Source: a virus
Virus record (IMG/VR): IMGVR_UViG_3300036770_001519
Coordinates: 1-64,000 of that record
Strand: one strand, 5' to 3'
Length of the DNA: 64,000 nucleotides
Both the position numbers and the translations under genes were made by a program. Under the pieces are notes generated by a model. It did not search any database, had not been told where the DNA came from, and saw nothing but the letters and a program-made list of their open reading frames with translations. This document shows positions 1 to 64,000 of this stretch, in pieces (within the stretch, counting starts at the first letter, position 1; each line of letters opens with the position of its first letter).

Positions 1-1
1 A

Positions 2-3000
2 AACGAATCTGGAGAATTTACTTCAGATGATTTTAATACTTTAGCTAATGCTTTAAGTCTCCAGTTTACGATATCAGCTAGTTCGTTGAAGAAGGTAATT
101 GATCAAAAGGCTAGTTCTATAGTAGCAGTAGAGGATGCAAATCTTAGTGCTATAAAGCCTTCTGTAGTTTCTGAAAATGCTTTTCAAAAAGCATTTGCAG
201 CTGCGTCTGCAATACAGGCCATGTTTGAACCAACCGTTGGAACGCTGAAGAAAATTGAAACAGGGTTAACTGCTGAAGAGTTCTATAAACAAGCCAAGGT
301 TCTAGGTCAGGATCCCTCTCTACCATTGCTATTGGAATCGTTTACCCCTAAGGAAAACAAGATAGTACATGGTTTGATCTCTCTGTTTAATACGACTGCG
401 GATGTAATGGTTCCAATTATCCAAAAGATAAAGGAAGAAAATCCATCGCAGATTACGCCAAGAGATATTGTAAACGCTGTCATGTCTCGTTATGTTATTT
501 CAACGACACCAAAGACAAGTTCTAGCGAAATAGAATCTTGGTACCGTGCAAATACAAACACGGGAAATCATACAGAAGTTAGCTTGTATAAGATTAGGGA
601 GGCAATAAAGAAGTTTGAAGTAAAAAACTGGAACGATGCCAGACCTATTATTTCAAAGCTTCTAGATACAAGACAACTTGGCGATGAGTTCATGCGTAAG
701 GAAGCTTTTGATGTAATTGCCAAGATTAAGCAAGACCTTTCTCCTGATAAGCTTTCCAGAGAACAACGAAAAGAAAAGTTTAGGGACTTCTTCTTTGACG
801 AGAATGGAAAGAATCTATTGGTTACTAACGACCTTGGAATACCAATCCTGTTTCACAGAGGACACGGAGAAACGGTTGCAAAGGATCTTGTAGAGGGAAC
901 TACAGACCGTGGTATTAGATTCTGGGGAGAAGATTCAAGAGTTGCTAGAGACTATGAAAAGTCATTCCCAATTGTAACAGCATACCTAAGAGCGGATGAA
1001 AAAAATATTCTTGTTGTTGAACCTGAATATCCTGTTTCATGGAGTGGAATTCCTATAAGATATATTAAAGAAAGCTTGTTGAAATTTGGCTGGGATGAGA
1101 TGAAAGTTGTTAAGTTTATCAATGGTCGTTCTTCAATGAGCATTGACGAACTTTCCAAGGAAACACAAGTAAGTGGTAAATACAAGGATGACACGATTCT
1201 TGCCGTAAAGGTAACAAATCTTCTTGACTATACCACTTTGGGTACAGAAGTTATTCCACATACCCAGTGGACAATCAGATCTGACCTAAACATTATGAAG
1301 TCTCCCGAAGCGGTTGAGTTTGATAAGACCCCAGGTCCAATGCGAATTCTCAACCAGAAGAGAGCTGAAGATCAGATCAGGGATCTTATTGCTTCTGCCA
1401 AGGCAGCTGGCGCAGACGCTAGAGAGATTGAAGCAGAGCTTTCAAGCCTTGTTGATTCGGCTGCGGTGAGAAGAAGAAATCTAATTGGAATGGGTCTGCA
1501 TGAGGAAACTGAACCAGATGACCTTAAGGTTATACATGACTTGATCAGCGGAAACGATGCCTACAGTGGAGTTGACATGAGTCACTTCATGGATCGTTTT
1601 GTTGGTGAAGGGAAGAAAACTAGTGCAGATACCGTGGCAAAGTTCAGAGGAAAGTCCTACAGGGATCTGGACGAAGACGAGAGAAGAACCTTTGTTCTTG
1701 ATGTTATGATGCCAAAGATCTCAGAAGAGATCGGCATGCGAAACAAGACGGCTGGCGTATTCTCAGCGTTGTCCGACAGTGTCGTTGGAAAGGGTGCAAA
1801 CTCCCTTATTGGTGGTGCTGCCATGTATGGCGATACTGCTGACAGCACTTCGATATCCCTGCAGTTCCTAAGCAAGATCCTGGATCCATCCATGGATCTT
1901 CGTGATGGAGAGCTTCAGAACACGTTTAGATTGTTCTCTGTTGACAAGCTCAATGCAGAACTTAACAACACATTCAGCAGATCTGGTCTTCTATCAGTGA
2001 AGAACAAGATCGCGTCACGTGTGACAAACGAAGCTGGACTTCGTCAGCTGAACGATACCGCATGGTCCTATCTGTCCAGACTTGATCAACTTCCAGAGGA
2101 TGTTCCCCATAGGGATCTCATCGTGGAGCTTATTCAGGCAGTGCACAAGCACAATACTCTTTCAGCCGATGTGCTGAACAAGTATGGTAACTTGATGGAC
2201 CCAATGAATCCCACCGAGTACGGTACCATTCACAAGGTGAATAACCTTGCGTTCAGGGACCAGCAGGGATTTGTAGACGCGCTTACAAAGAACGCAGTTC
2301 GAAAGACGATAGACAATAAGGAGATCTCCGTTATCACCGCCGAGGCACTTGGCTGGGTAAAGATAAACCGAAACCCAGGTGCTACCGACGAGATCGTATC
2401 CGTCACTATTCTTGACGATGCTCCACTGAATCTTGAGAAAAAGGAATACCAGTGGAACAAGGAGACGAAGAAGCTGTTTGGAAAGGATTCCATCAAGTAT
2501 ATCAAGGAAGACCAGCTTGCCAAGTACAACAAGGCACTGACAAGCAACGAGGACTACCTTGAGTCGTTCAAACGTCTCTACTCAAGACGCGGTGTAAACT
2601 ACAGTGCAATCGCCCAGTCAATGACGATAGCCAAGGATAGATACCTTGGAATCGAAGACGGCGATGACAAGACTGGAAAGCCAAGGTCGGAGTCGGTAGG
2701 AAGCGGAAGAAACTATTCCGAGGAAAGAATCCTGTCACACACCGACATTGCAAGCAATCCAGAACTAGCCAAGTATTTCCAGAAGGACATCTACGATCTG
2801 ATCTACCAACAGGTTCGGTCGCAGCTTACGGAAGCCACCATGACAAAATACATCTCAGAGTACTTCGGAGTGAAGATGTCATGGAACGATCTTGTAAACG
2901 TCCTAAGAAAGTTTGGAGAGGAATCCCAGGACAAGGCAAACCTGTCTCAGAAAGAACAGGAATCCAGAACACGCGGATTCAACAGACTAAGCGATATCTG

Positions 3001-4309
3001 GGAACAGAACACTGGAAAGATGATCCGATCAAAGGACGGACTTGACAAGTACTACGAGGCGTTGGCTTCCAATGCACGTGTACCCGTTCTTGTTCTTGGC
3101 GGTATAAGAGCCGCCCTGTCATCTGTGGGTGAAGTAGGTAGAGCCGTTCTGGCAAGCAACCACAACAAGGGAATGCTTGTTCAGGTAGTTCCAAACCTAA
3201 TACAGACCCTAAAGATGTTCAGCAAGAACAAGCGTCAGACGATTCAAGAAGTAACCAGTGCAACCCACTGGCTTAGAAACCTGACAAGCGATCACCTTCT
3301 TGCCAGGTCTGAAATGAATCCAGAGAATCCATTCGGAGGTGCCATGCTTGGATCCCGCCAAAGCGGTTGGTTCAAGAGATGGGCTGAGGAATGGAGAGCC
3401 GTATCCGACATCAATGCCACTGAGACTAACATTGTCAACAGAGGATTGAACAGGCTGGGAATAGTTGCAAGCAGACTGGGAGCACCACTCGCTTGGGTAA
3501 ACGACGTGACAACCACGCTTCACGTGTGGAATGCACAGAGAAACCTAACGACCAATGCACCCAAGTTCATGGAGCTGGCAAAGAAGCTGGAAAGCAACAA
3601 GGAGATAAACCTTGGAAGCTTTGCCCGTCTTGCCAAGGAATGCGGTCTATCCAGCAAGGAAGCCCTTGACCTAAGCACCGCTGGTCTTCTAGACCCCAAG
3701 ATGATTGAGGTAATGATCGAAGCCAGCAAGGATACAGCAAACTATACAGACGGTCTTCTGGACGTACAGAAGCTATTCCTGTGGGCAGGAGATTCTCCAG
3801 AAAGAATCGAAGCCATCAACAGAATGGGTGCCTACATCAATACCACAAGCCGTCAGACAAACACAGATCCAACCCTGCTGGATCTACGAATCAACCAATC
3901 AGCCTATGCCAAGGCATTTGGCGTATTCATGCAGTTCCTACTCAGCCACTCTGTACAGGAGATCGGACGTAGACGCAGATACTCCACTGCCAACTACGGT
4001 AAGCACCTAGCTGGCATAATGATCATGGAAGCCCTTACCTACAGTCTAGCCCGTCAGAAGGAAGACGATAAGTGGATATGGGAAGAAGCCCAGGAAAAGC
4101 CAATAGACGTAACCCTACGTCTAATGACTGGTATGCCAATGCTTGGCTCCTACCAATACCTAGGCAGTCTTATTCGCCAAATCCTACAGGGAGGATATAA
4201 CGTAATGCAAGGAGATGAATTTGGTAGAGTACGTCTACCCGATCTCTTCTCTGCACCAGCTGAGAACATTCCTAACAAGGGTTGGGAAGTATTCAGAGAC
4301 ATGTTATAA
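2..4309 (+). CDS. Giant internal virion protein, C-terminal part (5' end outside window), with ADP-ribosyltransferase-like domain
   Basis: The reading frame is open from base 2, so the start lies outside the window; at least 1435 codons are present. Around nt 818-1290 lies a stretch that resembles the ADP-ribosyltransferase domain of phage polyvalent and MuF-type proteins. It has an ILFHRGH strand, then RGIRFWGEDSRVARDYE, a YLRADEKNILVVEP strand and finally VTNLLDY and IPHTQWTIRSD, in the usual order. The rest is helical and charged without a recognised fold, ending shortly before a terminator-like hairpin. Position just before the early region, after the internal virion genes in circular order, suggests a gp16-type protein ejected into the host. 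The first 1.3 kb is more AT-rich than the rest. The virion role and the transferase call are inferences from position and motif order; catalytic residues were not proven. Confidence 0.7.
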   Translation, partial: NESGEFTSDDFNTLANALSLQFTISASSLKKVIDQKASSIVAVEDANLSAIKPSVVSENAFQKAFAAASAIQAMFEPTVGTLKKIETGLTAEEFYKQAKVLGQDPSLPLLLESFTPKENKIVHGLISLFNTTADVMVPIIQKIKEENPSQITPRDIVNAVMSRYVISTTPKTSSSEIESWYRANTNTGNHTEVSLYKIREAIKKFEVKNWNDARPIISKLLDTRQLGDEFMRKEAFDVIAKIKQDLSPDKLSREQRKEKFRDFFFDENGKNLLVTNDLGIPILFHRGHGETVAKDLVEGTTDRGIRFWGEDSRVARDYEKSFPIVTAYLRADEKNILVVEPEYPVSWSGIPIRYIKESLLKFGWDEMKVVKFINGRSSMSIDELSKETQVSGKYKDDTILAVKVTNLLDYTTLGTEVIPHTQWTIRSDLNIMKSPEAVEFDKTPGPMRILNQKRAEDQIRDLIASAKAAGADAREIEAELSSLVDSAAVRRRNLIGMGLHEETEPDDLKVIHDLISGNDAYSGVDMSHFMDRFVGEGKKTSADTVAKFRGKSYRDLDEDERRTFVLDVMMPKISEEIGMRNKTAGVFSALSDSVVGKGANSLIGGAAMYGDTADSTSISLQFLSKILDPSMDLRDGELQNTFRLFSVDKLNAELNNTFSRSGLLSVKNKIASRVTNEAGLRQLNDTAWSYLSRLDQLPEDVPHRDLIVELIQAVHKHNTLSADVLNKYGNLMDPMNPTEYGTIHKVNNLAFRDQQGFVDALTKNAVRKTIDNKEISVITAEALGWVKINRNPGATDEIVSVTILDDAPLNLEKKEYQWNKETKKLFGKDSIKYIKEDQLAKYNKALTSNEDYLESFKRLYSRRGVNYSAIAQSMTIAKDRYLGIEDGDDKTGKPRSESVGSGRNYSEERILSHTDIASNPELAKYFQKDIYDLIYQQVRSQLTEATMTKYISEYFGVKMSWNDLVNVLRKFGEESQDKANLSQKEQESRTRGFNRLSDIWEQNTGKMIRSKDGLDKYYEALASNARVPVLVLGGIRAALSSVGEVGRAVLASNHNKGMLVQVVPNLIQTLKMFSKNKRQTIQEVTSATHWLRNLTSDHLLARSEMNPENPFGGAMLGSRQSGWFKRWAEEWRAVSDINATETNIVNRGLNRLGIVASRLGAPLAWVNDVTTTLHVWNAQRNLTTNAPKFMELAKKLESNKEINLGSFARLAKECGLSSKEALDLSTAGLLDPKMIEVMIEASKDTANYTDGLLDVQKLFLWAGDSPERIEAINRMGAYINTTSRQTNTDPTLLDLRINQSAYAKAFGVFMQFLLSHSVQEIGRRRRYSTANYGKHLAGIMIMEALTYSLARQKEDDKWIWEEAQEKPIDVTLRLMTGMPMLGSYQYLGSLIRQILQGGYNVMQGDEFGRVRLPDLFSAPAENIPNKGWEVFRDML

Positions 4310-12555: not shown

Positions 12556-15033
12556 ATGTCTAACTACTGCAAGGGAAACTGCTGGGATAACCTGTCGTTT
12601 GAACAGCGTGAGCAGAGACTTACTCTCAACTCAGTCTTTGAAGAAGACATCTTCAATGAATCCATGCACAAATACTGGGAGAATTATGAGAAACTCCCAA
12701 GCATGTGTGCTCCTGAACAAGCATTGATTTACCGTGTCGTGGATCATATCTCCGATGCGGTCGAACAATATCTCTGCGACCTTCAGAAGCGAAACATATC
12801 CTGGGTCACGCCGATCTATCTGCTTGGTCCAAGACGTGTTGCTGGTTTGTTGATTACTGTTTGTGCTGATACGATCATCAGCCAGAGACGTAAGTGCATT
12901 GAAAGCGATGACCTTGGCAACCGTGTCTATGCTCCTGTTCTACAGCAGGATCTTGCACGTGCAATTGCCAACACAATACAGACTGCCGTCAACTATCAGC
13001 AGTCTAAGCAAGACAACCCAGGTGCATGGGTACTCGCATCTAGGATCGTCAAGTCTAGGTGGACCAAGAGACAGATAAAGGATTTCATCAAGCATCACAA
13101 GACGCAAGGTCATATCAAGATGACCAATAAGGAGAGATACTATCTTGGTCTTAATCTCCTGTCCATCCTTGAACGTGCCGAGATCATACAACTCAACAAG
13201 TTCTGGGATGGTCCTGCATCTTCACCTATCGCTGTGTCATTCACCAACCATGTTACCGAGGGATTGACTACTGCACACTCAGACTTCCTGACACGTGCCA
13301 AGATCAGGTATCGACCTATGATCGTACCGCCATTCAAGCATACGCTTGACATGTCTGGTGGTACCCATACCGAACATCTCCGAAAGGGTATGGTCGATAG
13401 GGGTTACACGTACTTTCATGGCGAAGACTACGTGACTGAGTTCAAGGGTAGCGAACCATCTCAGGCTGTCATTGATGGTCTAAACAGCCTCATGTCAACC
13501 GAGTGGACAGTAAACACACGGGTGTACGAGGTGATGGACACGCTGTTCAAGAACAACCTTCGCGTTGCAAACCTACCGCCATATGAACTTGATCCTGTTC
13601 TAACTCAGGACAGGCTTGATGTCGATGATCCAGCAGAGGTTGAGCGAATCAAGAAGGAACGTTCGGAGCTGTGGTCAGAGTGGTATCGCAAGGAGAACGA
13701 GCGCATACGAATGTGTCTACGGCTAAGTATAGCCCGTGAGATGATTGCGTATGGCTTCTTCTACCATGTGTATACCTGTGACTTCAGGGGCAGGGCATAT
13801 ACCGTCACCGATCTTCTGTCTCCCCAGTCAGGGGATCACGATAGGTCTTTGATCCTATTTGCCAACCCAATGAAGCAGACTGAACGTGGAATGTACTGGC
13901 TCAAGGTTCATCTTGCAAACCTGTTCGATCAGGACAAGAAGTCGTTTGCCAAGCGTGTCAAGTGGGTCGATGACAACATCGCCATGCTAAGGAAGATCAA
14001 CGATGATCCTCATGGTACGCTTGACCTATGGGCAGATGACAAGAAGAAGAAGAACCAGTCGTTCCAAAGACTGGCTGCTGTGTTCGAACTGTTCCGAAAG
14101 GATGGATTGACTCAGCTACCTGTCGGAATGGATGGTTCTTGCAACGGTATCCAGCACTGGGCTGCAATCGCAAAGGATCCTATCATTGGTCAGATGGTAA
14201 ACCTTCTGCCATGCGAGGAACCAAACGACGCATATGGTGTCGTTGCTGCTGAGGTAACGCAGTCGATGCTTCCCTTGAACTACAAGGATCCATGGGTCAC
14301 CATGTTCCTTGAGCACTGGGAAGGTTCGATCAAGAGATCGGTTGTCAAGAGAGCCGTGATGACAGATCCCTATGGTGTCACTACAAGGGGTATCACGGAT
14401 GGTCTGTTGAACGATGGTCACCTCGACTGGATAGACAAGACGGTAAAGGTAAACGCAGCGCGTGAACTTACCAAGTATGTTCAGGCTGCTATGAATACGC
14501 TGCTCACGATCCCCAACCAAGGCAAGGTGTGGCTCAAGCAGGTATCCAAGGTTGCATCCGAGAAGCAGGTCCATCTTGAATGGACTACGCCAATTGGATT
14601 CAAGGTTCGTCACCAGTACTATGGCAAGACGAACGGTGTTGTAAACCTACAGTCGATGATAACATCCATGCGCGTTGAGTTCAACGAGTTTGTAAGGGAC
14701 GAAGTCAATGGACGGGAAGCACAGAACGGCATCTCTCCCAACTTCATCCACTCGCTTGACGCATCGCATATGTTTGCTGTCATCATCGGACTGTCGTTGC
14801 TTGGTTGTGAATCGTATTCGTTCATCCATGATTCATACGGTGTTCATGCACCATTGGTTGATTCGCTGCGAGACATAACCAGGCAGGAGTTTGTACGTAT
14901 TCACGAAGTAAACCAACTTGATCGGCTGCGTCAGCAATTGTCCGAGTATCTTGAGGTTGATCTTCCCAACGTTCCGAGCACGGGTTCATTGGACATTACA
15001 AAGGTGCTAGAAAGCGAGTACTTCTTTCATTGA
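12556..15033 (+). CDS. T7-type single-subunit DNA-directed RNA polymerase
   Basis: 825 aa (T7 enzyme 883). All core motifs are present: DFRGRAYT, MDGSCNGIQHW with catalytic Asp526, KRAVMTDPYG with Lys598 and Tyr606 (the residue that selects rNTPs in T7), NFIHSLDASHM and FIHDSYGVH with catalytic Asp759. It ends YFFH, near the aromatic FAFA end of T7 polymerase. It should transcribe the middle and late phage genes from its own promoters. AAAGGAG precedes the ATG, and the 16-bp repeat lies just upstream. Confidence 0.97.
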   Translation: MSNYCKGNCWDNLSFEQREQRLTLNSVFEEDIFNESMHKYWENYEKLPSMCAPEQALIYRVVDHISDAVEQYLCDLQKRNISWVTPIYLLGPRRVAGLLITVCADTIISQRRKCIESDDLGNRVYAPVLQQDLARAIANTIQTAVNYQQSKQDNPGAWVLASRIVKSRWTKRQIKDFIKHHKTQGHIKMTNKERYYLGLNLLSILERAEIIQLNKFWDGPASSPIAVSFTNHVTEGLTTAHSDFLTRAKIRYRPMIVPPFKHTLDMSGGTHTEHLRKGMVDRGYTYFHGEDYVTEFKGSEPSQAVIDGLNSLMSTEWTVNTRVYEVMDTLFKNNLRVANLPPYELDPVLTQDRLDVDDPAEVERIKKERSELWSEWYRKENERIRMCLRLSIAREMIAYGFFYHVYTCDFRGRAYTVTDLLSPQSGDHDRSLILFANPMKQTERGMYWLKVHLANLFDQDKKSFAKRVKWVDDNIAMLRKINDDPHGTLDLWADDKKKKNQSFQRLAAVFELFRKDGLTQLPVGMDGSCNGIQHWAAIAKDPIIGQMVNLLPCEEPNDAYGVVAAEVTQSMLPLNYKDPWVTMFLEHWEGSIKRSVVKRAVMTDPYGVTTRGITDGLLNDGHLDWIDKTVKVNAARELTKYVQAAMNTLLTIPNQGKVWLKQVSKVASEKQVHLEWTTPIGFKVRHQYYGKTNGVVNLQSMITSMRVEFNEFVRDEVNGREAQNGISPNFIHSLDASHMFAVIIGLSLLGCESYSFIHDSYGVHAPLVDSLRDITRQEFVRIHEVNQLDRLRQQLSEYLEVDLPNVPSTGSLDITKVLESEYFFH

Positions 15034-18243: not shown

Positions 18244-18317
18244 CAAACACTGGTGGCAAGGGTCTGAGAGATAAACAGACAGCCTGTGGAATACTGCAAC
18301 GTATTCCCCACCATTAT

Positions 18318-18408
18318 GGGCGTTTAGCATCTGGGTATGCAATCCTGCTTATAACAGGACTTAGTGGCCGATTACCGCGAGAGGTGGGTTCGATTCCCTC
18401 AACGCCTA
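18318..18408 (+). tRNA. tRNA with anticodon UAU (Ile by anticodon) and a long variable arm
   Basis: Acceptor GGGCGTT/AACGCCT, D arm GCAT-CTGGGT-ATGC, anticodon stem TCCTG/CAGGA around CTTATAA (anticodon TAT), and T loop TTCGATT. The variable region is about 24 bases with its own GTGG/CCGC stem, as in Ser, Leu or Tyr tRNAs, which is odd for isoleucine. One T-stem pair is mismatched. Confidence 0.7.
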
Positions 18409-18411
18409 TTA

Positions 18412-18486
18412 TGCCAAGGTAGACCAACGGCAGAGTCAACGCTCTCAAAATGCGTTAAGTGTGGGTTCGAATCCCATCCTTGGTAC
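18412..18486 (+). tRNA. tRNA with anticodon CAA (Leu by anticodon), short variable loop
   Basis: Acceptor TGCCAAG/CTTGGTA, anticodon loop CTCAAAA inside an ACGC/GCGT stem, T arm GTGGG-TTCGAAT-CCCAT. Leucine tRNAs normally carry a long variable arm; this one has about five bases there, so its charging identity is uncertain. Confidence 0.7.
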
Positions 18487-18489
18487 TAA

Positions 18490-18562
18490 GGTTTCGTAAC
18501 TCAGTTGGTAGAGTAGTGGACTTTTAATCCATAAGTCGTGGGTTCAAGTCCCACCGAAACCA
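18490..18562 (+). tRNA. tRNA-Lys(UUU)
   Basis: Complete cloverleaf: acceptor GGTTTCG/CGAAACC, D loop with AGTTGGTA, anticodon loop CTTTTAA (TTT), T arm GTGGG-TTCAAGT-CCCAC. AAG/AAA lysine codons are very frequent in the late genes. Confidence 0.92.
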
Positions 18563-18566
18563 TCAT

Positions 18567-18639
18567 ATTCCTGTAGCTCAACGGATAGAGCATCAGCCTT
18601 CTAAGCTGGTGGTTGGTGGTTCGAATCCACCCAGGAATG
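18567..18639 (+). tRNA. tRNA-Arg(UCU)
   Basis: Complete cloverleaf: acceptor ATTCCTG/CAGGAAT, anticodon loop CTTCTAA (TCT), T arm GGTGG-TTCGAAT-CCACC. It reads AGA/AGG, and AGA is the common arginine codon in the late genes here. Confidence 0.92.
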
Positions 18640-18656
18640 TTAAAGGAGGATAGCAA

Positions 18657-53021: not shown

Positions 53022-53684
53022 ATGCCCTTTATTGTAGGCGGTTTAGCAGCAGCTAGTTCTATCATGTCTGGTATTGGCGGCGCATCACAGAGCAAGGCAA
53101 ATGCCATTGCAGCCAGGATGCAGCAGGACCAGCAGAACTTCCAGAATAAATGGCAGAATGAAGCTCAGAATAGAAACCTACTGAGACAATGGGAGGCTCA
53201 GTATTTCATCAACAAGCAAATTGAACGAGGCGCAAACCAACAGCTCACGATGGGCAAGGTCTACGCCAGAGACTCCTATAAGAATGAAGCATCGCTTCTA
53301 TCAAAACAAACAAGACAGGCAAACAATGCATTTCTTGGCTCCGTAAGTGCCAAAGGAATGTCGTTGGATTCTGCTTCTGCAAGAGCACTCCTAAGACAAA
53401 GTGTCGAGGAGTCCCAGACAATCAGCAGAACAATGAGAACAAACTTTGAAAACCAGATGCGTGATCTTGAGACAAACTATCAGAATGTTATTTCTGGCAG
53501 AGATCTCAATGTACCAGAACAGCAGACATTGCTTACCAGCAAGGCTGTTGTTGCAGATGCATCTTCAAGCATGCTTATGACTGGTATTGCTACTGGTCTA
53601 CTTAGCGGAGCCTCAGCTGGTATTGGAGCTTATAGCGAATACGGCTGGGATAAGTCGGTATCAGGAAGGCTATCTGGAAAATAA
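53022..53684 (+). CDS. Internal virion protein (T7 gp14 type)
   Basis: 220 aa (T7 gp14 196). A hydrophobic N-terminus (FIVGGLAAASSIMSGIGG) is followed by Gln/Asn-rich helices and a hydrophobic SMLMTGIATGLLSG segment near the C-terminus. It should form the outer-membrane part of the ejection channel. Confidence 0.78.
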   Translation: MPFIVGGLAAASSIMSGIGGASQSKANAIAARMQQDQQNFQNKWQNEAQNRNLLRQWEAQYFINKQIERGANQQLTMGKVYARDSYKNEASLLSKQTRQANNAFLGSVSAKGMSLDSASARALLRQSVEESQTISRTMRTNFENQMRDLETNYQNVISGRDLNVPEQQTLLTSKAVVADASSSMLMTGIATGLLSGASAGIGAYSEYGWDKSVSGRLSGK

Positions 53685-53686
53685 CA

Positions 53687-54676
53687 ATGCTAAATACTGA
53701 TAAACTAAACAAGCTGTATAAACTGGCTACTGGTAATAAATCAGAACAAGCAACACCAAAGAGCAAGGATAGACTAAAGCTTGACAAGGCAGAGAAAAGC
53801 CTTAGAAGCTATAGAAGCGCATACTCAGATCCCGTAGATGCGTGGTCCAAGTGGGTTGCAGAACAAGATCAAAACATCGATGCAGACAACGCAGATGATG
53901 TTTGGAACATGGCTGAAAAAGAGTTTCCTGGTTCTCAGGAACAAGCAAGAGATCAGATTCGAAATCAGATTAGATCACGAATCTCGTCTAACGATCCATC
54001 TATACGAGAACAGCAGCTTAGAAACACCATGATTAAATCACCATCGTGGTTGAATCAAGAACTTGAGGAAGAACTAAGGACCGCGTCTACAGTCTCTTCC
54101 AATCAGAACTTATTCAAGTCAAAGTCTGTATACCTAAAATCTCTTGAGCAAAAACTTGGAAAGTTTAACTTCCAGGAACTTGACCCAGACGTTCCAGCTG
54201 ATGTTCACGTCATGGAAGCTGTAAAGCTTGAGGCACTTGGTCTTCTGGATACTGCAAAGATTGTTAATGGAAGATTTGTTGTCATGGGTAAAGGCGGCTC
54301 AATTCAGCCAGCCTTCTCCGTAACACAAGAAGCAGAGCTGTCTGGAGAACTCAACACGGAATCTCCAGAGATACAGATGATTATGCAGCTAGCTCCTTCC
54401 ATTGTAAAGAAGTACGTGGAACCAGCCATGCAGTCAACTCAGGGAATTATGTCCATGGAAAACAGGGCATCAAGAGGTGCTGCGCTTCAGATGCTTCGGG
54501 GAGGATCTCTTCCCGTTGATCGCTGGGGTGAGGCACTGTCCCTACTAAATGAAAATCAGGGTGCTGGAATCAACGAAGGCATAGCTGGACTTGCTGAACA
54601 GAACCCAAACATGAACGAAGAAGATGCTGCCAAGTACAGCATGGATATCATTAGTAATTACGGAGGTATGGTTTGA
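53687..54676 (+). CDS. Internal virion protein (329 aa)
   Basis: Soluble, helical, basic N-terminus (SRKSKDRLKLDKAEK-like region) and an ordered C-terminus with GAALQMLRGGSLP. Lies in the internal virion operon between the gp14-like and gp15-like genes. No family recognised; stop overlaps the next start. Confidence 0.65.
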   Translation: MLNTDKLNKLYKLATGNKSEQATPKSKDRLKLDKAEKSLRSYRSAYSDPVDAWSKWVAEQDQNIDADNADDVWNMAEKEFPGSQEQARDQIRNQIRSRISSNDPSIREQQLRNTMIKSPSWLNQELEEELRTASTVSSNQNLFKSKSVYLKSLEQKLGKFNFQELDPDVPADVHVMEAVKLEALGLLDTAKIVNGRFVVMGKGGSIQPAFSVTQEAELSGELNTESPEIQMIMQLAPSIVKKYVEPAMQSTQGIMSMENRASRGAALQMLRGGSLPVDRWGEALSLLNENQGAGINEGIAGLAEQNPNMNEEDAAKYSMDIISNYGGMV

Positions 54677-57600
54677 GTAGAATTGAAACACAAGGACCAC
54701 AGGCGTTCCTCATGCCTTCGCAGAAGCCAGCTCTATATCAGGAAAGTGCAACGATCTTTCCTCAGCCTAGAGTTGACATAGCCGAGGGCATCGACATCGG
54801 TGCTATTGGCAAGGCTGCATATGGTTTGGGTGCAGAGATCGTAGATGCAACAACAAAGTATAGATTTAATAAGACTCAAACCGCACTTGATTCCTATACC
54901 ATTGCATCAGAGGCAGCTCTAAAAGCTTTTGCGGACAATGGACAATTCGACAAGTACAAGCAAGAGCAAGAAAACTACCGAAAGCAAGTAAGAGAACTTC
55001 TTGGCTTTGATCCAGAAAAGGACGAGCCATTTGGAAACCAGCAACAAAGACTAAAGGCAAGTGCAACAAAGGCAATAGCAACCTTTGATAATAACCTTGG
55101 AGTTGCTCAGGGAGAATACGAGCAACTGGTAGAGCTTGATACATTTGAATCAATGGCAAATAAGCTTGAGGTTGAACTACAATTACAACCAACAGCTGAA
55201 GATAGAATTAGATACATCAATGAGACAATGCGACCAGGAATAGCTGGCGTGTTTAAGACTAGTTTTGGATCTGATATCTTTACGCTTGATCCAAAATTAC
55301 CAATGTCTAAGCAAAAAAGAGCATTGGCAAGAACCATAGAGGCTGCTTGGCTTAAGCTTCAAAACGAAATTGACAGATCTGAAAATGAAATAGCCAATAG
55401 AAAAGAAGATAAGATTGTGTTTCCAGAACTTGATACCAATCAAGCAAGAAACAACATTAAAATAGGAAGAGATAACGTATCAAGTGCAAGTCAGGCACTT
55501 GATCTTTTACGTGACGCACTTCCAGGTATTAAAAAGGATGACATACCTCTTAGTTCCTTACCACAGGATCAACAAGTAGCTATAAATTCAGCTGGTAAAA
55601 GCGTTGCATCTGCTCTTAACTATTATAGAAGAGCGGTTGGTGATTTGCTTACACAAGCTTGGGAAATTAACAGCGGTCCCATGGGTCCACTGCTTCCTTT
55701 TGAGGATAGTCCCTATGCCGAAGTAGATCCACTAAGCGATGAGGCACTGACTATTATTGCAGACTCACCAGGCGTAAAGCCTGAAGACATGAGCGAGCTT
55801 ACACAGTTTAGAAAAGAACTAAGAGATTTTGAATTCTCGGCAATGAAAAGCGTTGTGGGTGTGCAAACCAGCATACTAGACGCTGCTATTGAAAAAAGAA
55901 AAAGAATTGCACAGGGTCTATTTGAGCAGACTTCAGCAAGGGTTGCTCTTATTGATCGTGACGCAGCAGTAAATCCAGAAGCGGCTACACTTGAAAGAGA
56001 GCGAATATCACAGGAGTTTGAAGCTCAACTTACAGCACTTCTTTCAAACGCATCTCCATACAGTCAGTCTGATTTTCTAGCTAACTTCAGAAAAAAGAAG
56101 ATAACATCTTCTACAGACTTAATAATGGCTGTAAGAGAATCCGTTCCACCAACATTCAGTCTATCCGTTTTTGGAAACCTAATGGACAGCCGACTGGATT
56201 CAACTCCTAGATTCAGGGAAGAGTTTAATACATTCCTTGATTTTAACATGCGGCTTCAAAAGCAAATCTATGGCGATCAAAAAGCAACCATAGGATCTGC
56301 ACTAGACGCAACAAGAAGACAGTCTGAAAAGTTTTTAAAGGACCAAGAAAAACGAAGAAGACTTTTAAACATAATAGCATACGAACAGGGTGGAACAAAG
56401 GAAACTTTAGAACCTGAAAAAGTAACTCAAGCTGAAAAAAGAGAAGCTGCGTTTCTTGCTATTCAGATGAAACTTCCAGCTGGTTCCAGCTTGTATGATG
56501 ACAATGGAAACCTAAAGGAACTTTCCGTTATATCGGAAGAACTCAGCAGGGGCAACCAATCAGTTCCTCTTCCTCTTTCGCTGCTGATGGAAACACCATA
56601 CTGGCAGCACATGCTTTCTGATGTGCAGAATTCAAAAACACCAGAAGACACCCTAAAGAGGCTTTTTGCTCCATTCATCAGTGGTCCAGAAGGTGGTGGT
56701 GGAATAAGCTGGGATGATATCAAGAGATCCAATACCTATACCCTGAGATCACCCGATATCTCCGATAATGCTTCTGACGCTATTATGGAGGGCTTGAAGT
56801 CTTCCAACCCAGGAAGAACCCAAGCAACAATGGCAACTTTTCTAATGTATCCAGAGGATACTAGAAAGCAGTTTCTTGCTAGACTTGATACTGCTATTGA
56901 AGCGGAAACAGATCCCCTTACCAAACATTCCTTAAGTATTCGTAGGGCAAGATTAACAGCCTTTAACAACACATATAAGAATGAGAACCCATTTGAGTTT
57001 GTTAAAAACGAAATTAATGTAATTCCAGATGAGCAGGTTGTTCTATACGATAGACTAAAGAGAACACTAACAGGGTTAGCTGGTGGTCGTATTTCTGAAG
57101 CTCAAAAGGAAGGTATTGAAAAAGCAATATCAGAAGGAAGAGCTACACAAAAGTCTGAAGAGCTTGCAGAACTTCAAAGACTAATGCCAATGTTTGCCTC
57201 TGTATATGAAAATATTCAGATTGGAAACGGTACTGAACTTTCAGACGATGGCAAAACAACTGTAGAAGATCGCTTTAGAAAACTATTGTCTGATCCTTCA
57301 GATGAAGAACTATTAGACAGAAGAACTGCTGCTAGTATTGTTGATCAGGTAATACTTGATGAATACTTTGAATCTCGCTGGGCGCATCCAGCATTAGATC
57401 CTAACTCCGATGATTTCTCAGACATTTTAACAAAACGAGTAAACGATAAACTCTCATCATTTGCGTGGAAAACACGTGTTCTTGATCCAAACTTTGGAAA
57501 TACAAAAGCATCTAAGCCACGTGAAAAAACAACAATGCCATCTCACATCTCTACAAGAGGTGGTGTCGATGGATTGTTTACCACCGAACAGGCAGTAATG

Positions 57601-58998
57601 TCCTCTAACCCGCTTGTAATGGGTTTTGCGGATGACATGACTGCAAAGACTGTGGTTGGTCAGTTTCTTCCAGCAAATGCTGAAGCAACTGCGGCAATAA
57701 AAAGCATGCCAAACCAACACGCAGCTCTTGCAGCTGTAGCAGCAGCTAGTAATATTCCACCTTATGTGGTGGGCATTTCAAGAGACAGCCCAGCAAAGAT
57801 GGCTTACTATCTTGCAGAGGCTGCATTGAATGGAAAAACAGATGCAGCTGCAATACTTGCAGCACAGGCTACTCTTTCCATGATGCCAGAAGTATCGTCA
57901 GAAGACGATGCGAGAAAGAAGGCTGCATCTCTTGGAGCAAGAATACGCTCGCAAATTCTTGATGGTACTTTAAAGATGGAGACTGAGGCCCATCCCTCGT
58001 TCATGAGTGAAGATAGTCTTGTTCCAACCTATGTACTCTACGTAAACGGAAAGAAGGTTGCATCCATGCAACCAAATTCCAACAGCGTTACAGAGAACCT
58101 CAAGGACAATCCAGTATATGTCGAGAGACTTAAGAAGACATCTTCAAGAGAAATATCAGACATATACAACAGTGATTCTTTTACGGCTGACAAGGAGCAA
58201 GACTTCTCCATGCCAACAAAAAGAGACATGCTTGTAAAAGATTGGTTGATGGCACAGGAAGAACCAAACCTTCTTATCAGGCCTTATATCCACAGCGATA
58301 CCGCAACATTCTCACACAACCTGTGGGATGAAGCGTGGGCTTTTAGAAAGAAGACCATGCCAGATGGTACTGTTGTGGTTGAGAAGGTAAAGCAGATAAA
58401 GCAATATAAGAAGGAAGACGGTTCCTTTAGCTCTACTCCACGCTGGGCTGACTATACCGAGGTATACGATCCAGCACTATATGGTGGCGTAGAAAGAAAG
58501 CGATTTAGAACAAGCGAAACATCGTCACGTCTTAAGTTTGTAGAATCGCCAGGTCTTCCACTACACAGACCAGTTCTTCTTGAGACAAGAAGACCTGAAA
58601 GATATCTTGATGATCCAAACATTGCCACTGGAGAATCGCTTGTGTACAGTCCAGAGAGACTTGCAGAAGACGAGCAAAACCTGTTGATGCTTGAAGAACC
58701 AAGCAACGTCAGGGAAATCTTTGTAAATACCAGAGGCAATAGACGATATTCATCCGAGTTTGAAAATCTTGGTAAGAAGGATGAATCCATCAATAGACTG
58801 TTGAATTCCGATGACACGACCCTAACGGTTGCAGAAGTATCGGAAGACACAAGAGACTTCACAAGGTTTGTTTCGACCTTTGTCAAGTTCCAAGATCCAC
58901 TGACGAAACAACTGAAGATAATGCGATATACCACAATGACGGCTGGTCCATGGAAGCAATCCTATGATCCAATCATTGTATACTCTGCGGATGAGTAA
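54673..58998 (+). CDS. Large internal virion protein (T7 gp15-like position, 1441 aa)
   Basis: TTG start overlapping the previous stop (TTGA). Almost entirely helical and charged, about twice the size of T7 gp15 (747). One more compact region near residues 965-1090 reads ADDMTAKTVVGQFLP and ALAAVAAASNIPPYVVGIS, followed by FMSEDSLVPTYVLYVNGKK. It should be ejected and build part of the periplasmic channel. Followed by a terminator-like hairpin. Confidence 0.72.
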   Translation: MSRIETQGPQAFLMPSQKPALYQESATIFPQPRVDIAEGIDIGAIGKAAYGLGAEIVDATTKYRFNKTQTALDSYTIASEAALKAFADNGQFDKYKQEQENYRKQVRELLGFDPEKDEPFGNQQQRLKASATKAIATFDNNLGVAQGEYEQLVELDTFESMANKLEVELQLQPTAEDRIRYINETMRPGIAGVFKTSFGSDIFTLDPKLPMSKQKRALARTIEAAWLKLQNEIDRSENEIANRKEDKIVFPELDTNQARNNIKIGRDNVSSASQALDLLRDALPGIKKDDIPLSSLPQDQQVAINSAGKSVASALNYYRRAVGDLLTQAWEINSGPMGPLLPFEDSPYAEVDPLSDEALTIIADSPGVKPEDMSELTQFRKELRDFEFSAMKSVVGVQTSILDAAIEKRKRIAQGLFEQTSARVALIDRDAAVNPEAATLERERISQEFEAQLTALLSNASPYSQSDFLANFRKKKITSSTDLIMAVRESVPPTFSLSVFGNLMDSRLDSTPRFREEFNTFLDFNMRLQKQIYGDQKATIGSALDATRRQSEKFLKDQEKRRRLLNIIAYEQGGTKETLEPEKVTQAEKREAAFLAIQMKLPAGSSLYDDNGNLKELSVISEELSRGNQSVPLPLSLLMETPYWQHMLSDVQNSKTPEDTLKRLFAPFISGPEGGGGISWDDIKRSNTYTLRSPDISDNASDAIMEGLKSSNPGRTQATMATFLMYPEDTRKQFLARLDTAIEAETDPLTKHSLSIRRARLTAFNNTYKNENPFEFVKNEINVIPDEQVVLYDRLKRTLTGLAGGRISEAQKEGIEKAISEGRATQKSEELAELQRLMPMFASVYENIQIGNGTELSDDGKTTVEDRFRKLLSDPSDEELLDRRTAASIVDQVILDEYFESRWAHPALDPNSDDFSDILTKRVNDKLSSFAWKTRVLDPNFGNTKASKPREKTTMPSHISTRGGVDGLFTTEQAVMSSNPLVMGFADDMTAKTVVGQFLPANAEATAAIKSMPNQHAALAAVAAASNIPPYVVGISRDSPAKMAYYLAEAALNGKTDAAAILAAQATLSMMPEVSSEDDARKKAASLGARIRSQILDGTLKMETEAHPSFMSEDSLVPTYVLYVNGKKVASMQPNSNSVTENLKDNPVYVERLKKTSSREISDIYNSDSFTADKEQDFSMPTKRDMLVKDWLMAQEEPNLLIRPYIHSDTATFSHNLWDEAWAFRKKTMPDGTVVVEKVKQIKQYKKEDGSFSSTPRWADYTEVYDPALYGGVERKRFRTSETSSRLKFVESPGLPLHRPVLLETRRPERYLDDPNIATGESLVYSPERLAEDEQNLLMLEEPSNVREIFVNTRGNRRYSSEFENLGKKDESINRLLNSDDTTLTVAEVSEDTRDFTRFVSTFVKFQDPLTKQLKIMRYTTMTAGPWKQSYDPIIVYSADE

Positions 58999-59064: not shown

Positions 59065-62000
59065 ATGTCAGGTATTGATCCATTTAAGCTTCTCCAAGAT
59101 GTGTTTGAATCAAACAAACAGCTTGCTTCGGAGCGAGATCCAGATACAAAACCACTTTTTGCACAGTATGCTGGACTAGAAAACAGCATTTCAGAGTCGG
59201 CAGTACAACCTACGCTAGCCGCACAACGTGCAGAGAGAGCACAGTTTGATAGAGAATACGTTGGCTTAAGCACTCTTAAGGCATTTGATAATCTTAAATT
59301 CAACGTTGTAGATGACAACGGTTCGCGGTTTAATCGCGGCTACTCAGCAATGAAGGATACCGTACAGACGGCATCTTCGCAGGGTTGGGGTGAACGAAAT
59401 ATCTTTAGAGAGAGACAGCGTTTAAACATGTCGAAGGGACAGGCTTCTGGTTTCATCAAGACATCCGATGAAATGGGAAGCTGGAGAGATAGAAGAGAAG
59501 GAATCTCACAATGGTACGATGGTGTAGTAGAGCACTTTGAAAAGTGGTTCCACACTACCGAGCTTGAGGGAGATTACCAGAAACTCAAGTGGCAGCTGTC
59601 ACAACCAGACAGTAGCTGGACAGAGGCTAGAAAGTATGAAGCTCTTTCCAATTGGCAAGAGCAGAACAAGGAAGCCTATGACTACATAAGACGGGCTGGC
59701 GTTGACTTCAATACGTTTGTCGGACCAACGGTAAACGAAACTGGATTCAATGTAGCTATGATGGAAGCCGCAAAGCAAGCGGTTCTAAATCGAAGAATGC
59801 GTCTTTGGGAAGAAGACAACGGTGCAGTACTGAAGTTTGTTGCATCGGCTGCAGAAAGTTTCAAGGATCCTGCCATGATGCGGGATATCCTTCTTACTAC
59901 AGCCCTAACAATGGGACTTGCAACGCCACAGGTCATAGGCACAAGACTAGGTGTCAACGGTCTTCAGGTTTCCCAGTCAGCACTGGCTTCAGCACGTCTG
60001 TTGCAGTTGACAGGACCAATGACTGGTCTTATTGAAGGACCAGTATATGCAGCTTTGCGTGGCACCATTCTGAATCAAGCAGGACGCAGGGCAACCGATA
60101 CGATGGTTGCCCGTGGTCTTGCTATGTTTACTGAAGGTGCTGTTGCGGGAACTGTTGCATCTCTTGCAGATCAACGTGATGACTACGAGTGGAGATCACT
60201 TGTATTCAAGGATACCGACAAGGTGTTCAAGTATGACTTCAAGAACGCAATTACAGAGGGTGTCTACAGCGGTACGGGAGCAATGACCATGCTTGGTCTA
60301 ATGCGCTTCGGTCTTGGTGCCCTTGGTGACTTCAAGTACTACAGCAAGGGTGACTGGAACAACTGGGGACGAAGCATTGCCAACTCCCTTGACACATGGG
60401 CAGAAACAAAGGAAGGTCTTACCGTATTCGGAGAACAACTAAGCGATGGTCGCGGAATGTTCTTTGGAGATCTTATCGACAGATACATGAAGGGTAAGGA
60501 CGGTAGGGATTTTGCAAACATAATGTTGAATGGAAGCCGTCTATTTGGTCGGCTTGATCCAGTAATTGCTGGACGCTTGAACTTGGATACAAAAGAAGTT
60601 CTTGAAGTAGCTGAGGAATTTGAAAAGATAACTGGAGTGGCTGGTGAAGCTGCAATGAGACGCCTTGATGGTGTCGATCCAGATCTAAGCAATACCTTCA
60701 TGCTAATGCTTAACAAGAAGTTCCTTGAGTCCCAGGATCTAAGCTACCCAGAAGTAGCAGGTCTTCTAAAGGACTTCTCAAGCTATTCGTCTGGAAAGGG
60801 AATGCTTCCTCTTCCAGAGACTGGCGAAGGTAGATTCCTAAGAGCCGTGAAAAAGGATCCAGCAAGAACATCGCAGCAACTCAGACGCTTGCTTGACCTC
60901 AGAATTCTCGACAAGAAGCTGAACAAGTATGGTGTCTCAAGTGTTGTAGCTCTGGCAGATGCAGAGAATGCCCTTGGTCGCAGACTGGATCTCATGGAAG
61001 ACAACGACTATAGATCCTATAGAATGGCTGCTGCATTTGCCGAGGGTTCACAAAAGGAACAGGCAGTTGTCTCTTCGCTATCAACGCTACTTAGTACAAC
61101 TGATGAAATGGTAAACATTGGCGGCAGAGAAATTCCAACAGAGGTTGCACGGCAAGCCGTAAGAACCTCACTTGGTCTTGACGGTCGCAAGGAATTGCTT
61201 TACCTGAACGACGCTGGAGAAGCCGACAGAGCCACATTCATGGTTATGATCGACCCAGCAACCAACGAGGTTCTTCGAACTAGACGGCAGCTTACCGTTG
61301 GCAAGGATGGATCTCTTGAGATCTCATTCGCTGCCAAGGAAAATGCTTCCTATAAGCCAGAGAATATAATCTCAACGGTCGAGTTCAAGGAAAAGATAGA
61401 GGAAATAAACAACAAGATCCGCGAAGGTTGGCTTGATTGGACAAAGAAGAATATCAAGAAGGCCATCGAAGGAGTTAAGGATCCAGTAAAGAAGAAGGAA
61501 ATTGAAAAGACGTTTGACGATCTATTCAACGAGGGTAAGGAACCAACGATTGAAAACATCTCGCGTATCTTCAGCATGAACAAGACGGAGGCAACAGTCT
61601 CCCAGATAATCATGCGTTCTCTTGGTTACGATCCAAATGAAAAGATGTTGAGAATTGCAAGAGGTTCCGTAGACGAGGGTGCAACTGGAAACATCATTCT
61701 TGCTGGAACACAGGCACTTATCAACGCAACAAAGGCATCCGACATCGGAACAGTCGCACATGAGATGGGACACTATAATAGGTTCATCTTTGGTCAAGAC
61801 ACCGAAGACTCACGTGCAGCTCGTCATGCCATTGGAATTACCGATGACATGTGGGATAAGTTCAAGGACTGGTGCGGTGTAAAGGATGGCAACTGGACAC
61901 TAGCGGCAGAGGAGAAGTTTGCAAACGGCTGGGCTTATTACATCAGAAATGTAATGCAAGGCAATGGCAAGGCTCCAACTACCTCTATCCAGCGGCTCTT

Positions 62001-64000
62001 CCACAGACTTGGAGATCACCTAGGAAACGTAGGAGAAAACTTCAAGACTCAAGAAGCACTTGAAGCTGGTCTTGCTCTTTCACCAGTTGCAGAAGAAGTG
62101 TTTGAAAAGCTACTGATCAGAAGCAATGACAAGATCAGCGAACTATTTGACATCAGCTATCATAGAATCTTCAAGAGACTTCCAGCCGACAAACGAAATG
62201 AAATCGGCGTTGAGATTCTTGGAGAGATGGCGTGGAATGACTATAAGGCAAAGCTGGAAAAGTCAACGGCAGAAGCAAGAGTCAAGACTGATCCTATACT
62301 TGCAGGAGCAGCTGCTCCGCGTGTAAGGGTATCTGATGTTGTCAATGACATTGCAGCAGTAGCCGCAGGAACAGCTACAAAGAAGACAATCAGAGAAGCA
62401 CTAAAAGCTGGCTTGACCAAAGATCAAATTTTAAGTAAGCTTAAAGAGTTTGGTGCTCTTACAGCTAAATCACTTGGGACTTATCTTCCAAAAGATCGTG
62501 ATGCAACACCATATACTTTTGTAAAAACATACAAGCATAGTAAGTTACCATTTCACGCTGATACAACACTAGAAGTTATAGATGAAAAAATAGCTAGAGA
62601 GGGTAAAGACACTAAAATAAATTATGTTGTTGATACCCGTATTTCACTTACTGGTTCAGAACTAGAAATACTTCCAATTTTTTACTCTATTAGTTTAGAA
62701 GATCTACGAGCAGAGTTTGTAAGACGGTCTGGAGAAAAAACAGAAGCTCCAGAAGTTTCAGAAACCGAGATTCTAGAGGCTATTGATGCCTTGAGCACCT
62801 CAACTGGCTTCGTAGATTCCGATGGTCTTGCTGTAGAGCTAACATCAACAGAAGCTGTTGTAGCCACAATGCGGGCTGTAGAAGCTGCTGAAACAAGAGC
62901 TGTAGCTGAAAGAGCTGCGGCAACAGCAGACGAACTATCGACAAGAACCGATGAGGAAATGCTTGGATATTCTCCAGACACTTCCGTATCTACGGCTGGT
63001 GTTGAGGTTCTGTCTGCTTCTGAAATCAATGTTGAGACTGAGGTACCAACACCAGCAGCACTGGGTGTAACAAATACACTTGCACGTCTTACAACAGTAA
63101 GAAACAATGCAGAAAGAGTATCTCAGGAGCTTCCTGAAACAGCGCGAAGACAGCTGGCTGCGTTTGCATCACTGGCTGTTTCAAACCCAGAAAGAACGGC
63201 TGAGCTTGTAAAAGCTTGGCGTGAGTATCAGACTAATAACGTACAGACCGCTCCAAGGGCTGCAGAGGAATATCTTGTTGCAGAGATGCGAAACATCATT
63301 GCACGGGATACAATTGAAACCCTTACTGGAATGTCGGATGAGGCATTGACCCAGTTTGTTAGATTGCGAAAATTCGTTGAAGAGTTTTCGGATACTCCAG
63401 AGTATGACAAGCTTATTATCAACAATGATTTTGAAGGCTTCATTGAAAAGCATCCAGAATTCTCAAGAGAACAGCTTCAACTATACTTGCTTGGTCTTTC
63501 TCACATTCAGTCTCAGCTTTCACGTGCTGAGTTCATGTCGGCATCTCGTACCCTTAGAAGGGATGCTGCAGCATACGATGCCGCAGTTGCGTATGTAAAG
63601 GAAAACGAAGAGGCATATGCCAAGGCTCTTGAAACAAAGAGCGATGCTGACAAGGATCTGATCAAGAAAGTAAAGGCAAGCAAGACCATAATCACAAACT
63701 ATGAGAACGCACAAAAGCGTGTTCAGATGGGTGTGCTTGGCAACGAGATCGTTGACCAGGGAGTGGTTGAGTCCGTAACAAAGACAAGAACATTCGACAT
63801 TGAAAACCTTGCCAACTACCGCAGGGTCTACGATATCTACCAAGGTGTCGAGGACGTGCTGAACAACAAGGGTATTTCGGTTGACATCAGTGTGCTTGAT
63901 CTTCTTGAGGAGTTCGACAAAGACAACAAGCTTATCAGCAGCATTGCCGAAAGACTTGGCGTTTCCGATGAGGAAAACCAAAGAGAGGCTGTGCTTGAGT
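59065..64000 (+). CDS. Giant internal virion protein, N-terminal part (3' end outside window), with HEMGH metallopeptidase domain
   Basis: 1645 codons with no stop to the window end. Starts MSGIDPFKLLQDVFE at the ATG 59065. Around residues 270-420 there are hydrophobic stretches (LLTTALTMGLATPQ, GAMTMLGLMRFGLGALG) suited to membrane passage. At residues 893-965, IGTVAHEMGHYNRF gives an HExxH zinc site (His899, Glu900, His903), followed by AAEEKFANGWAYY, which may hold the third ligand; this is like the metallopeptidase domain of phage polyvalent proteins. An AT-rich piece at about 62.4-62.7 kb suggests insertion. It may be the same gene as 2-4309. Confidence 0.75.
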   Translation, partial: MSGIDPFKLLQDVFESNKQLASERDPDTKPLFAQYAGLENSISESAVQPTLAAQRAERAQFDREYVGLSTLKAFDNLKFNVVDDNGSRFNRGYSAMKDTVQTASSQGWGERNIFRERQRLNMSKGQASGFIKTSDEMGSWRDRREGISQWYDGVVEHFEKWFHTTELEGDYQKLKWQLSQPDSSWTEARKYEALSNWQEQNKEAYDYIRRAGVDFNTFVGPTVNETGFNVAMMEAAKQAVLNRRMRLWEEDNGAVLKFVASAAESFKDPAMMRDILLTTALTMGLATPQVIGTRLGVNGLQVSQSALASARLLQLTGPMTGLIEGPVYAALRGTILNQAGRRATDTMVARGLAMFTEGAVAGTVASLADQRDDYEWRSLVFKDTDKVFKYDFKNAITEGVYSGTGAMTMLGLMRFGLGALGDFKYYSKGDWNNWGRSIANSLDTWAETKEGLTVFGEQLSDGRGMFFGDLIDRYMKGKDGRDFANIMLNGSRLFGRLDPVIAGRLNLDTKEVLEVAEEFEKITGVAGEAAMRRLDGVDPDLSNTFMLMLNKKFLESQDLSYPEVAGLLKDFSSYSSGKGMLPLPETGEGRFLRAVKKDPARTSQQLRRLLDLRILDKKLNKYGVSSVVALADAENALGRRLDLMEDNDYRSYRMAAAFAEGSQKEQAVVSSLSTLLSTTDEMVNIGGREIPTEVARQAVRTSLGLDGRKELLYLNDAGEADRATFMVMIDPATNEVLRTRRQLTVGKDGSLEISFAAKENASYKPENIISTVEFKEKIEEINNKIREGWLDWTKKNIKKAIEGVKDPVKKKEIEKTFDDLFNEGKEPTIENISRIFSMNKTEATVSQIIMRSLGYDPNEKMLRIARGSVDEGATGNIILAGTQALINATKASDIGTVAHEMGHYNRFIFGQDTEDSRAARHAIGITDDMWDKFKDWCGVKDGNWTLAAEEKFANGWAYYIRNVMQGNGKAPTTSIQRLFHRLGDHLGNVGENFKTQEALEAGLALSPVAEEVFEKLLIRSNDKISELFDISYHRIFKRLPADKRNEIGVEILGEMAWNDYKAKLEKSTAEARVKTDPILAGAAAPRVRVSDVVNDIAAVAAGTATKKTIREALKAGLTKDQILSKLKEFGALTAKSLGTYLPKDRDATPYTFVKTYKHSKLPFHADTTLEVIDEKIAREGKDTKINYVVDTRISLTGSELEILPIFYSISLEDLRAEFVRRSGEKTEAPEVSETEILEAIDALSTSTGFVDSDGLAVELTSTEAVVATMRAVEAAETRAVAERAAATADELSTRTDEEMLGYSPDTSVSTAGVEVLSASEINVETEVPTPAALGVTNTLARLTTVRNNAERVSQELPETARRQLAAFASLAVSNPERTAELVKAWREYQTNNVQTAPRAAEEYLVAEMRNIIARDTIETLTGMSDEALTQFVRLRKFVEEFSDTPEYDKLIINNDFEGFIEKHPEFSREQLQLYLLGLSHIQSQLSRAEFMSASRTLRRDAAAYDAAVAYVKENEEAYAKALETKSDADKDLIKKVKASKTIITNYENAQKRVQMGVLGNEIVDQGVVESVTKTRTFDIENLANYRRVYDIYQGVEDVLNNKGISVDISVLDLLEEFDKDNKLISSIAERLGVSDEENQREAVLE

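What the first reader, a model, noticed from the sequence alone, without database searches (positions are those of the whole stretch)
818..1290. ADP-ribosyltransferase-like domain in a giant ejected virion protein
The segment order HRG, RGIRFW with VARDYE, ILVVEP, LLDY and IPHTQW resembles the transferase domain of phage polyvalent and MuF proteins. If active it would enter the cell with the DNA and modify host proteins at once, as T4 Alt does.
Basis: partly seen in the sequence, partly recalled or inferred. Interest (0 to 1): 0.75.

Follow-up and report, generated by a model that had tools for sequence, protein, structure and literature searches.

The report
Possible ADP-ribosyltransferase in giant ejection protein
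Part of a 4,238-residue protein that a T7-like phage probably injects into its host has, in the right order, the sequence landmarks of a known family of phage enzymes that tag host proteins with ADP-ribose, but the likeness is so faint that neither standard profile searches nor a structure prediction confirm it.

Summary
The quoted motifs are all present in one open frame of a giant gene. The record's two ends overlap by 198 nt, so that gene runs across the junction and encodes 4,238 aa. It follows TerL and a gp14-like gene in the position of the T7 ejection proteins, so 'giant ejected virion protein' is well supported, by gene position only. The candidate (giant aa ~3061-3244, nt 770-1321) has the landmarks of ART-PolyVal (PF18760, H-Y-D class) in order: F..FF.D, V.ND..G.P, FHRG, G.RFW...A..Y, V.AYLR...KN, DD, and Q. 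It outscores 1,980 unrelated segments and 6,000 shuffles under an ordered-block model of that family. That advantage rests on the family's pre-catalytic flank, which I added after seeing the match; the catalytic blocks alone are not significant. Pfam, PHROGs, NCBIfam, a 160-member HMM (0.6 bits versus 38 or more for true distant members), HHalign, AlphaFold2 (pLDDT 33 alone, 60 with a borrowed alignment) and Foldseek do not confirm it. It is not T4-Alt-like (R-S-E) by profile. Best reading: a very diverged ART-PolyVal-type domain (about 40% as a working enzyme, about 15% as an inactive relative); main rival, no ART at all (about 40%). If real, it is a new member of a known kind.

The parts
1..4309 (+). 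3' part of the giant ejection-protein gene (the ORF is open from nt 2; it continues the ORF that starts at 59065 across the circular junction)
59065..64000 (+). 5' part of the same gene (ATG start; runs on to record nt 67670, beyond the window); 4,238 aa in all
770..1321 (+). candidate ART-PolyVal-like domain, giant aa ~3061-3244
   Evidence: ordered-block model; no significant profile or fold match
779..844 (+). flank FRDFFFD (779-799) and LVTNDLGIP (818-844), matching the ART-PolyVal signature F..WFGD....VVDENGEP just before strand 1
845..865 (+). strand-1 motif ILFHRGH; possible catalytic His codons at 854-856 or 863-865
908..958 (+). RGIRFWGEDSRVARDYE, matching strand 2 plus the A..Y helix (family GFYFT......A..Y); aromatic F or W in place of Tyr
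971..1024 (+). IVTAYLRADEKNILVVEP, matching family V.VFLNIKNP
1190..1273 (+). DDTILAV...TEVIPHTQW: possible counterparts of the family's conserved Asp (YDG) and Gln (FNPNQIK), about 25 residues apart here and about 26 in the family; assigned by hand, the block model and alignment A3 place the C-terminal blocks differently
53022..53684 (+). gp14-like internal virion protein gene upstream (context)
   Evidence: Pfam T7_gp14 E 2.3e-4, below its curated cut-off
54673..58998 (+). 1,441-aa gene between the gp14-like genes and the giant, in gp15-like position (context)
61759..61773 (+). first HExxH motif (HEMGH, giant aa 899) of the giant protein; a second (HEVYH, aa 1972) lies beyond the window

Best explanation
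The segment is a strongly diverged ADP-ribosyltransferase-fold domain of the polyvalent-protein type (ART-PolyVal, H-Y-D class). It sits in the C-terminal third of a 4,238-aa protein that stands where T7 carries its ejection proteins. Inferred mechanism: the protein is packaged in the head with gp14- and gp15-like partners and unfolds through the portal at infection; its C-terminal part reaches the cytoplasm (as T7 gp16-C does), where the ART domain binds NAD+ and mono-ADP-ribosylates host targets before phage genes are expressed. Shown here: the gene, its position, and the ordered motifs. Inferred: fold, NAD+ binding, activity, delivery and targets.
For: All seven conserved blocks of ART-PolyVal occur in order and with plausible spacing; the score exceeds 7,980 decoys and falls at the lower edge of the distant members tested (36-75, with the seed member L030 at 163). 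MAFFT with 40 family members matches the flank residues F4, F8, V18, G23 and P25. HHalign ranks the region best in its own 4,238-aa protein. Hand-assigned counterparts exist for the family's conserved H, aromatic, D and Q (154, 145, 152 and 154 of 160 members). Context: TerL, a gp14-like gene, a gp15-position gene and then the giant; two HExxH motifs against 0.05 expected; a kinase-like domain at aa 2232-2510 shared with large phage proteins, some of which also carry an ART. ART-PolyVal is documented in giant virion RNA polymerases of podoviruses (PMC5512222; RPP1 found here). In T7, gp16-C ends up in the cytoplasm (PMC8954989).
Against: Pfam, PHROGs, NCBIfam and a direct PF18760 search find nothing. 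The 160-member HMM gives 0.6 bits, rank about 258 of 2,143 segments, whereas distant true members score 38-77. HHalign P is 0.027, and 5 of 300 shuffles do as well. Catalytic blocks alone are not significant. In the block model the flank block was added post hoc. The best register has no strand-2 Tyr. AlphaFold2 gives pLDDT 33 alone and 60 (pTM 0.44) with an alignment of assumed relatives; Foldseek finds no match at E<0.001. No homologue was found that could show conservation of the supposed catalytic residues.
Confidence: 0.4

Rival explanations
1. Not an ART: an orphan structural or linker segment of a fast-evolving ejection protein whose short motifs (FHRG, ARDY, G.P) resemble ARTs by chance and by the reader's selection from a 64-kb window.
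For: Every standard profile and fold test is at noise; core-block p is about 0.03-0.04; ejection proteins of this group diverge extremely fast: the gp15-position protein aligns at only 27-30% identity, over its N-terminal part, with relatives whose TerL is 85-89% identical, so weak resemblances are hard to judge.
Confidence: 0.4
2. A degenerate ART-fold domain that has lost activity (the strand-2 Tyr is absent and the HG/HR register is ambiguous) and is kept as a binding or structural module.
For: Flank conserved better than the catalytic core; R-F-W where most members have [YFW]-F-[TS]; two possible His positions with neither spacing exact.
Against: Plausible counterparts of all four conserved positions exist; many members also carry F or W in place of Tyr (64 of 160).
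Confidence: 0.15
3. A T4-Alt-like (R-S-E class) ART using the Arg of HRG and the Glu of TEVIP.
For: HRG and TEVIP superficially resemble the R and E motifs of that class; phages that share the giant's kinase-like domain carry a PF03496 ART downstream of it.
Against: A profile built from those phage ARTs gives the candidate -2.2 bits, rank 588; no S-T-S strand-2 motif; no PF03496 hit.
Confidence: 0.03

Closest known systems
ART-PolyVal (Pfam PF18760; Tox-ART-HYD2 clade, Iyer et al. 2017, PMC5512222), e.g. in the virion RNA polymerase of Roseovarius phages
   Same: Order of flank, H, aromatic strand-2 motif, A..Y helix, V.VYL strand, D and Q; embedded in a giant virion-type podovirus protein with metallopeptidase-like motifs
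   Different: No significant profile score; FHRG instead of YHGT, RFW instead of FYFT, about 55-residue longer stretch before the Asp; host protein lacks the vRNAP module
T7 gp16 (1,318-aa ejection protein; PMC8954989)
   Same: Gene follows gp14- and gp15-position genes in a T7-like phage; C-terminal part would face the cytoplasm
   Different: 4,238 aa; no detectable sequence similarity to gp16 profiles; additional effector-like domains
T4 Alt (R-S-E class, Alt/VIP2 clade)
   Same: Proposed delivery with the DNA and modification of host protein
   Different: Different ART class and no profile similarity; separate head protein rather than part of an ejection protein
Large ADP-ribosyltransferase-annotated proteins of Yersinia phage fHe-Yen8-01 (annotated particle-associated) and Aeromonas phage ST4
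   Same: Share the kinase-like domain (31-33% identity) and carry an ART in the same polypeptide
   Different: Their ART is PF03496-type, C-terminal, and unlike the candidate

Membership tests
ART-PolyVal (PF18760) | Score above the curated family cut-off (31.2 bits) | tested here: not met
   No hit with hmmscan at E<=10 or with the family search; own 160-member HMM 0.6 bits
ART-PolyVal (PF18760) | His in strand 1 ([YF]HG[TS]) | tested here: inconclusive
   FHRGHG: His present in two possible registers, HG context only for the second
ART-PolyVal (PF18760) | Tyr (or other aromatic) in strand 2 | tested here: inconclusive
   GIRFW: no Tyr; F or W with a one-residue shift; 64 of 160 members have F or W
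ART-PolyVal (PF18760) | Asp in strand 5 region | tested here: inconclusive
   DDTILAV aligns to YDG.I with D141 in the A3 alignment; strand assignment untested
ART-PolyVal (PF18760) | ART fold with NAD cleft | tested here: inconclusive
   AlphaFold2 pTM 0.44, no Foldseek match at E<0.001
ART-PolyVal (PF18760) | NAD+-dependent transferase activity | not testable with these tools
   Needs an experiment
Alt/VIP2 or other R-S-E ARTs | Arg strand 1, S-T-S strand 2, ExE strand 5; PF03496 similarity | tested here: not met
   Profile of phage R-S-E-type ARTs -2.2 bits; no PF03496 hit; no STS
Polyvalent proteins (Iyer et al. 2017) | Large multidomain protein encoded among virion genes with several effector-type domains | tested here: inconclusive
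   4,238 aa, next to TerL and gp14-like genes, two HExxH motifs, kinase-like domain; no domain passes a curated cut-off
T7 gp16 ejection protein | Position after gp14/gp15 and sequence or structure similarity | tested here: inconclusive
   Position met; no sequence similarity detected

The most novel reading that the evidence does not exclude
In this T7-like lineage the gp16-position ejection protein has grown to over 4,200 residues and become a multi-effector carrier (two metallopeptidase-like motifs, a HipA-like kinase-like domain and a highly diverged ART) that reaches the host cytoplasm before any phage gene is expressed. Its payload is exchanged so quickly that a related phage with 57% identical TerL has a protein of similar size (4,267 aa) with no recognisable similarity.
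Probability: 0.25. Interest if true: 0.55.

Novelty: new member of a known kind. Interest (0 to 1): 0.33.

Why it matters
If the domain is an ART, it extends injected ADP-ribosylating effectors from T4-like head proteins and N4-like virion polymerases to the ejection machine of T7-like podoviruses, and suggests that cytoplasm-facing parts of such proteins are sites where effectors are swapped. A 2022 survey reported ARTs in only about 3% of podoviruses (PMC9503650); very diverged copies inside giant ejection proteins would be missed by profile-based counts.

Tried and rejected
Relatives of the candidate or of the giant's C-terminal part: IMG/VR scans with four different stretches, a gapped FHRG...G..FW pattern (44 hits, none a homologue), one genome scan, tblastn in phages and plasmids at E<=10 and twelve related virus records: none. 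AlphaFold2 without an alignment (pLDDT 33) is useless; AlphaFold2 with 40 ART-PolyVal sequences is partly circular and still weak; ART-PolyVal-annotated viral proteins appear among its Foldseek matches only at E 0.2-1.1. The apparent profile hit at aa ~3100-3300 of the relative's giant (L018) was inspected and is chance. Phage proteins annotated 'ADP-ribosyltransferase' that match the giant match its kinase-like domain, not the candidate, so that annotation is not evidence for an ART here. An R-S-E-type profile was rejected. PDB sequence search: nothing relevant.

Full report
What the sequence shows. The finding lies in an ORF open from nt 2 to 4309. The window is nt 1-64000 of a 67,670-base IMG/VR virus record. 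The last 198 nt of the record repeat the first 198 with one mismatch, although IMG/VR classes the record as linear. The ORF that starts with ATG at 59065 runs off the record's end in the same frame and protein sequence, so one gene of 4,238 codons crosses the junction. A related phage record (L018; its TerL is 57-58% identical to this one over 547 aa in its near-identical sister L021) has an uninterrupted 4,267-aa ORF in the same place, which supports the joined reading. The candidate is therefore at giant aa ~3061-3244, in the C-terminal third.

Genome context. The phage encodes a T7-type RNA polymerase (12556-15033), primase-helicase, family A DNA polymerase, a tail protein of PHROG 457 and TerL (51349-53019). 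TerL is followed by a gp14-like gene (Pfam T7_gp14, E 2.3e-4, below its curated cut-off), a 329-aa gene, a 1,441-aa gene and the giant. In T7, gp14, gp15 and gp16 are ejected to build a channel, and the C-terminal part of gp16 ends in the cytoplasm (PMC8954989). That the giant is a gp16-type ejection protein rests on position only; no gp16 profile matches.

Is it an ART by similarity? Pfam (E up to 10), PHROGs, NCBIfam and a direct PF18760 search are empty. I fetched 160 ART-PolyVal members, seeded from a crAss-like phage ART that itself came from a tblastn search with the RPP1 virion-RNAP ART. With their HMM, distant phage ARTs score 38-77 bits but the candidate 0.6, about rank 258 of 2,143 segments. 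HHalign ranks the region best within the giant protein but at P 0.027, matched by 5 of 300 shuffles. By these tests it is not a demonstrable family member.

ART-PolyVal domains are preceded by F..WFGD.....SKVVDENGEPLVVYHGT; the window reads FRDFFFDENGKNLLVTNDLGIPILFHRG. A model of seven ordered blocks (flank, VVDENGEP, YHG, GFYFT..A..Y, VFLN.KNP, YDG, FNPNQIK) gives the candidate 36.9. None of 1,980 real or reversed segments (maximum 27.8) or 6,000 shuffles (maximum 35.9) reaches this, and the distant members tested score 36-75 (163 for the seed member L030). Without the first block, 5/1980 and 11/6000 decoys reach the candidate; with only the H, strand-2 and strand-3 blocks, 57/1980 and 256/6000 do. 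Gumbel fits give p of 3e-3 to 7e-3 for the full model. I added the flank after seeing the match, so the full-model figure is optimistic. In the block model the Asp block falls on GWDEMKV rather than on DDTILAV; the latter is aligned to YDG by MAFFT, and the Gln counterpart is assigned by eye.

Structure. AlphaFold2 of the segment alone has pLDDT 33. With 40 ART-PolyVal sequences aligned it reaches 60, pTM 0.44, with residues 1-30 and 51-80 at 72-80. That model borrows its evolutionary signal from the family under test, so it cannot prove membership. Foldseek finds nothing at E<0.001 in PDB or viral models; ART-PolyVal-annotated viral proteins are at ranks 2, 6 and 12 (E 0.2-1.1). The fold test is inconclusive.

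Catalytic residues. In 160 members the positions are H (154), aromatic (Y 81, F 53, W 11), D (152) and Q (154). The candidate offers H at 854-856 or 863-865, F/W at 920-925, D pair 1190-1195 and Q 1268-1270. None can be tested for conservation because no homologue was found. This is not surprising: the gp15-position protein aligns at only 27-30% identity, over its N-terminal part, with relatives whose TerL is 85-89% identical.

Neighbouring domains. Giant aa 2232-2510 match proteins of several phages at 26-37% identity, with invariant K, E, NWD and D.GG residues as in kinase-like folds; Pfam HipA_2 is hit by one member at E 0.057 only, and no PDB sequence matches. Some of these proteins are annotated ADP-ribosyltransferase because of a separate C-terminal PF03496 domain, one of them noted as particle-associated. 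The giant lacks a match to that ART. Two HExxH motifs (aa 899, 1972; 0.05 expected by shuffling) suggest metallopeptidase domains. These make a polyvalent-protein architecture likely.

Verdict. The likeness is to the H-Y-D polyvalent class, not to T4 Alt. If true, it is a new member of a known kind in an unusually large T7-like ejection protein.

Noticed in passing
window 1-198 and record 67473-67670: The record's ends overlap by 198 nt with one mismatch, inside the giant gene; the genome is probably circularly complete at about 67.5 kb, although IMG/VR classes the record as linear.
   Followed up: yes
record 65758-66594 (L002:6859-7695), beyond the window: Kinase-like domain (invariant K, E, NWD, D.GG) shared at 26-37% identity with large proteins of Aeromonas, Yersinia, Pseudomonas, Morganella, Enterobacter and Gordonia phages; next to ART domains in some of them.
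   Followed up: partly
window 61759-61773 and record 64978-64992: Two HExxH motifs in the giant protein (0.05 expected per shuffled protein), likely metallopeptidase domains as in polyvalent proteins.
   Followed up: partly
L018:6520-19320: The related phage's giant protein (4,267 aa) in the same place shows no significant similarity to this one (best match 19% identity at the C-terminus, E 4.8), suggesting very rapid turnover.
   Followed up: partly
window 54673-58998: The 1,441-aa protein in gp15 position aligns at only 27-30% identity, over its N-terminal part, with relatives whose TerL is 85-89% identical.
   Followed up: partly
L196:1991-6942, L015:1090-5900: In phages Mecenats66 and ST4 the large kinase-like/ART gene is followed by a gene annotated NUDIX hydrolase, a possible ADP-ribose-processing partner.
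   Followed up: no
window 18317-18640: Cluster of four tRNA genes (Ile-tat, Leu-caa, Lys-ttt, Arg-tct); the Ile-tat call has an unusual anticodon for a bacterial tRNA and may be worth checking.
   Followed up: no
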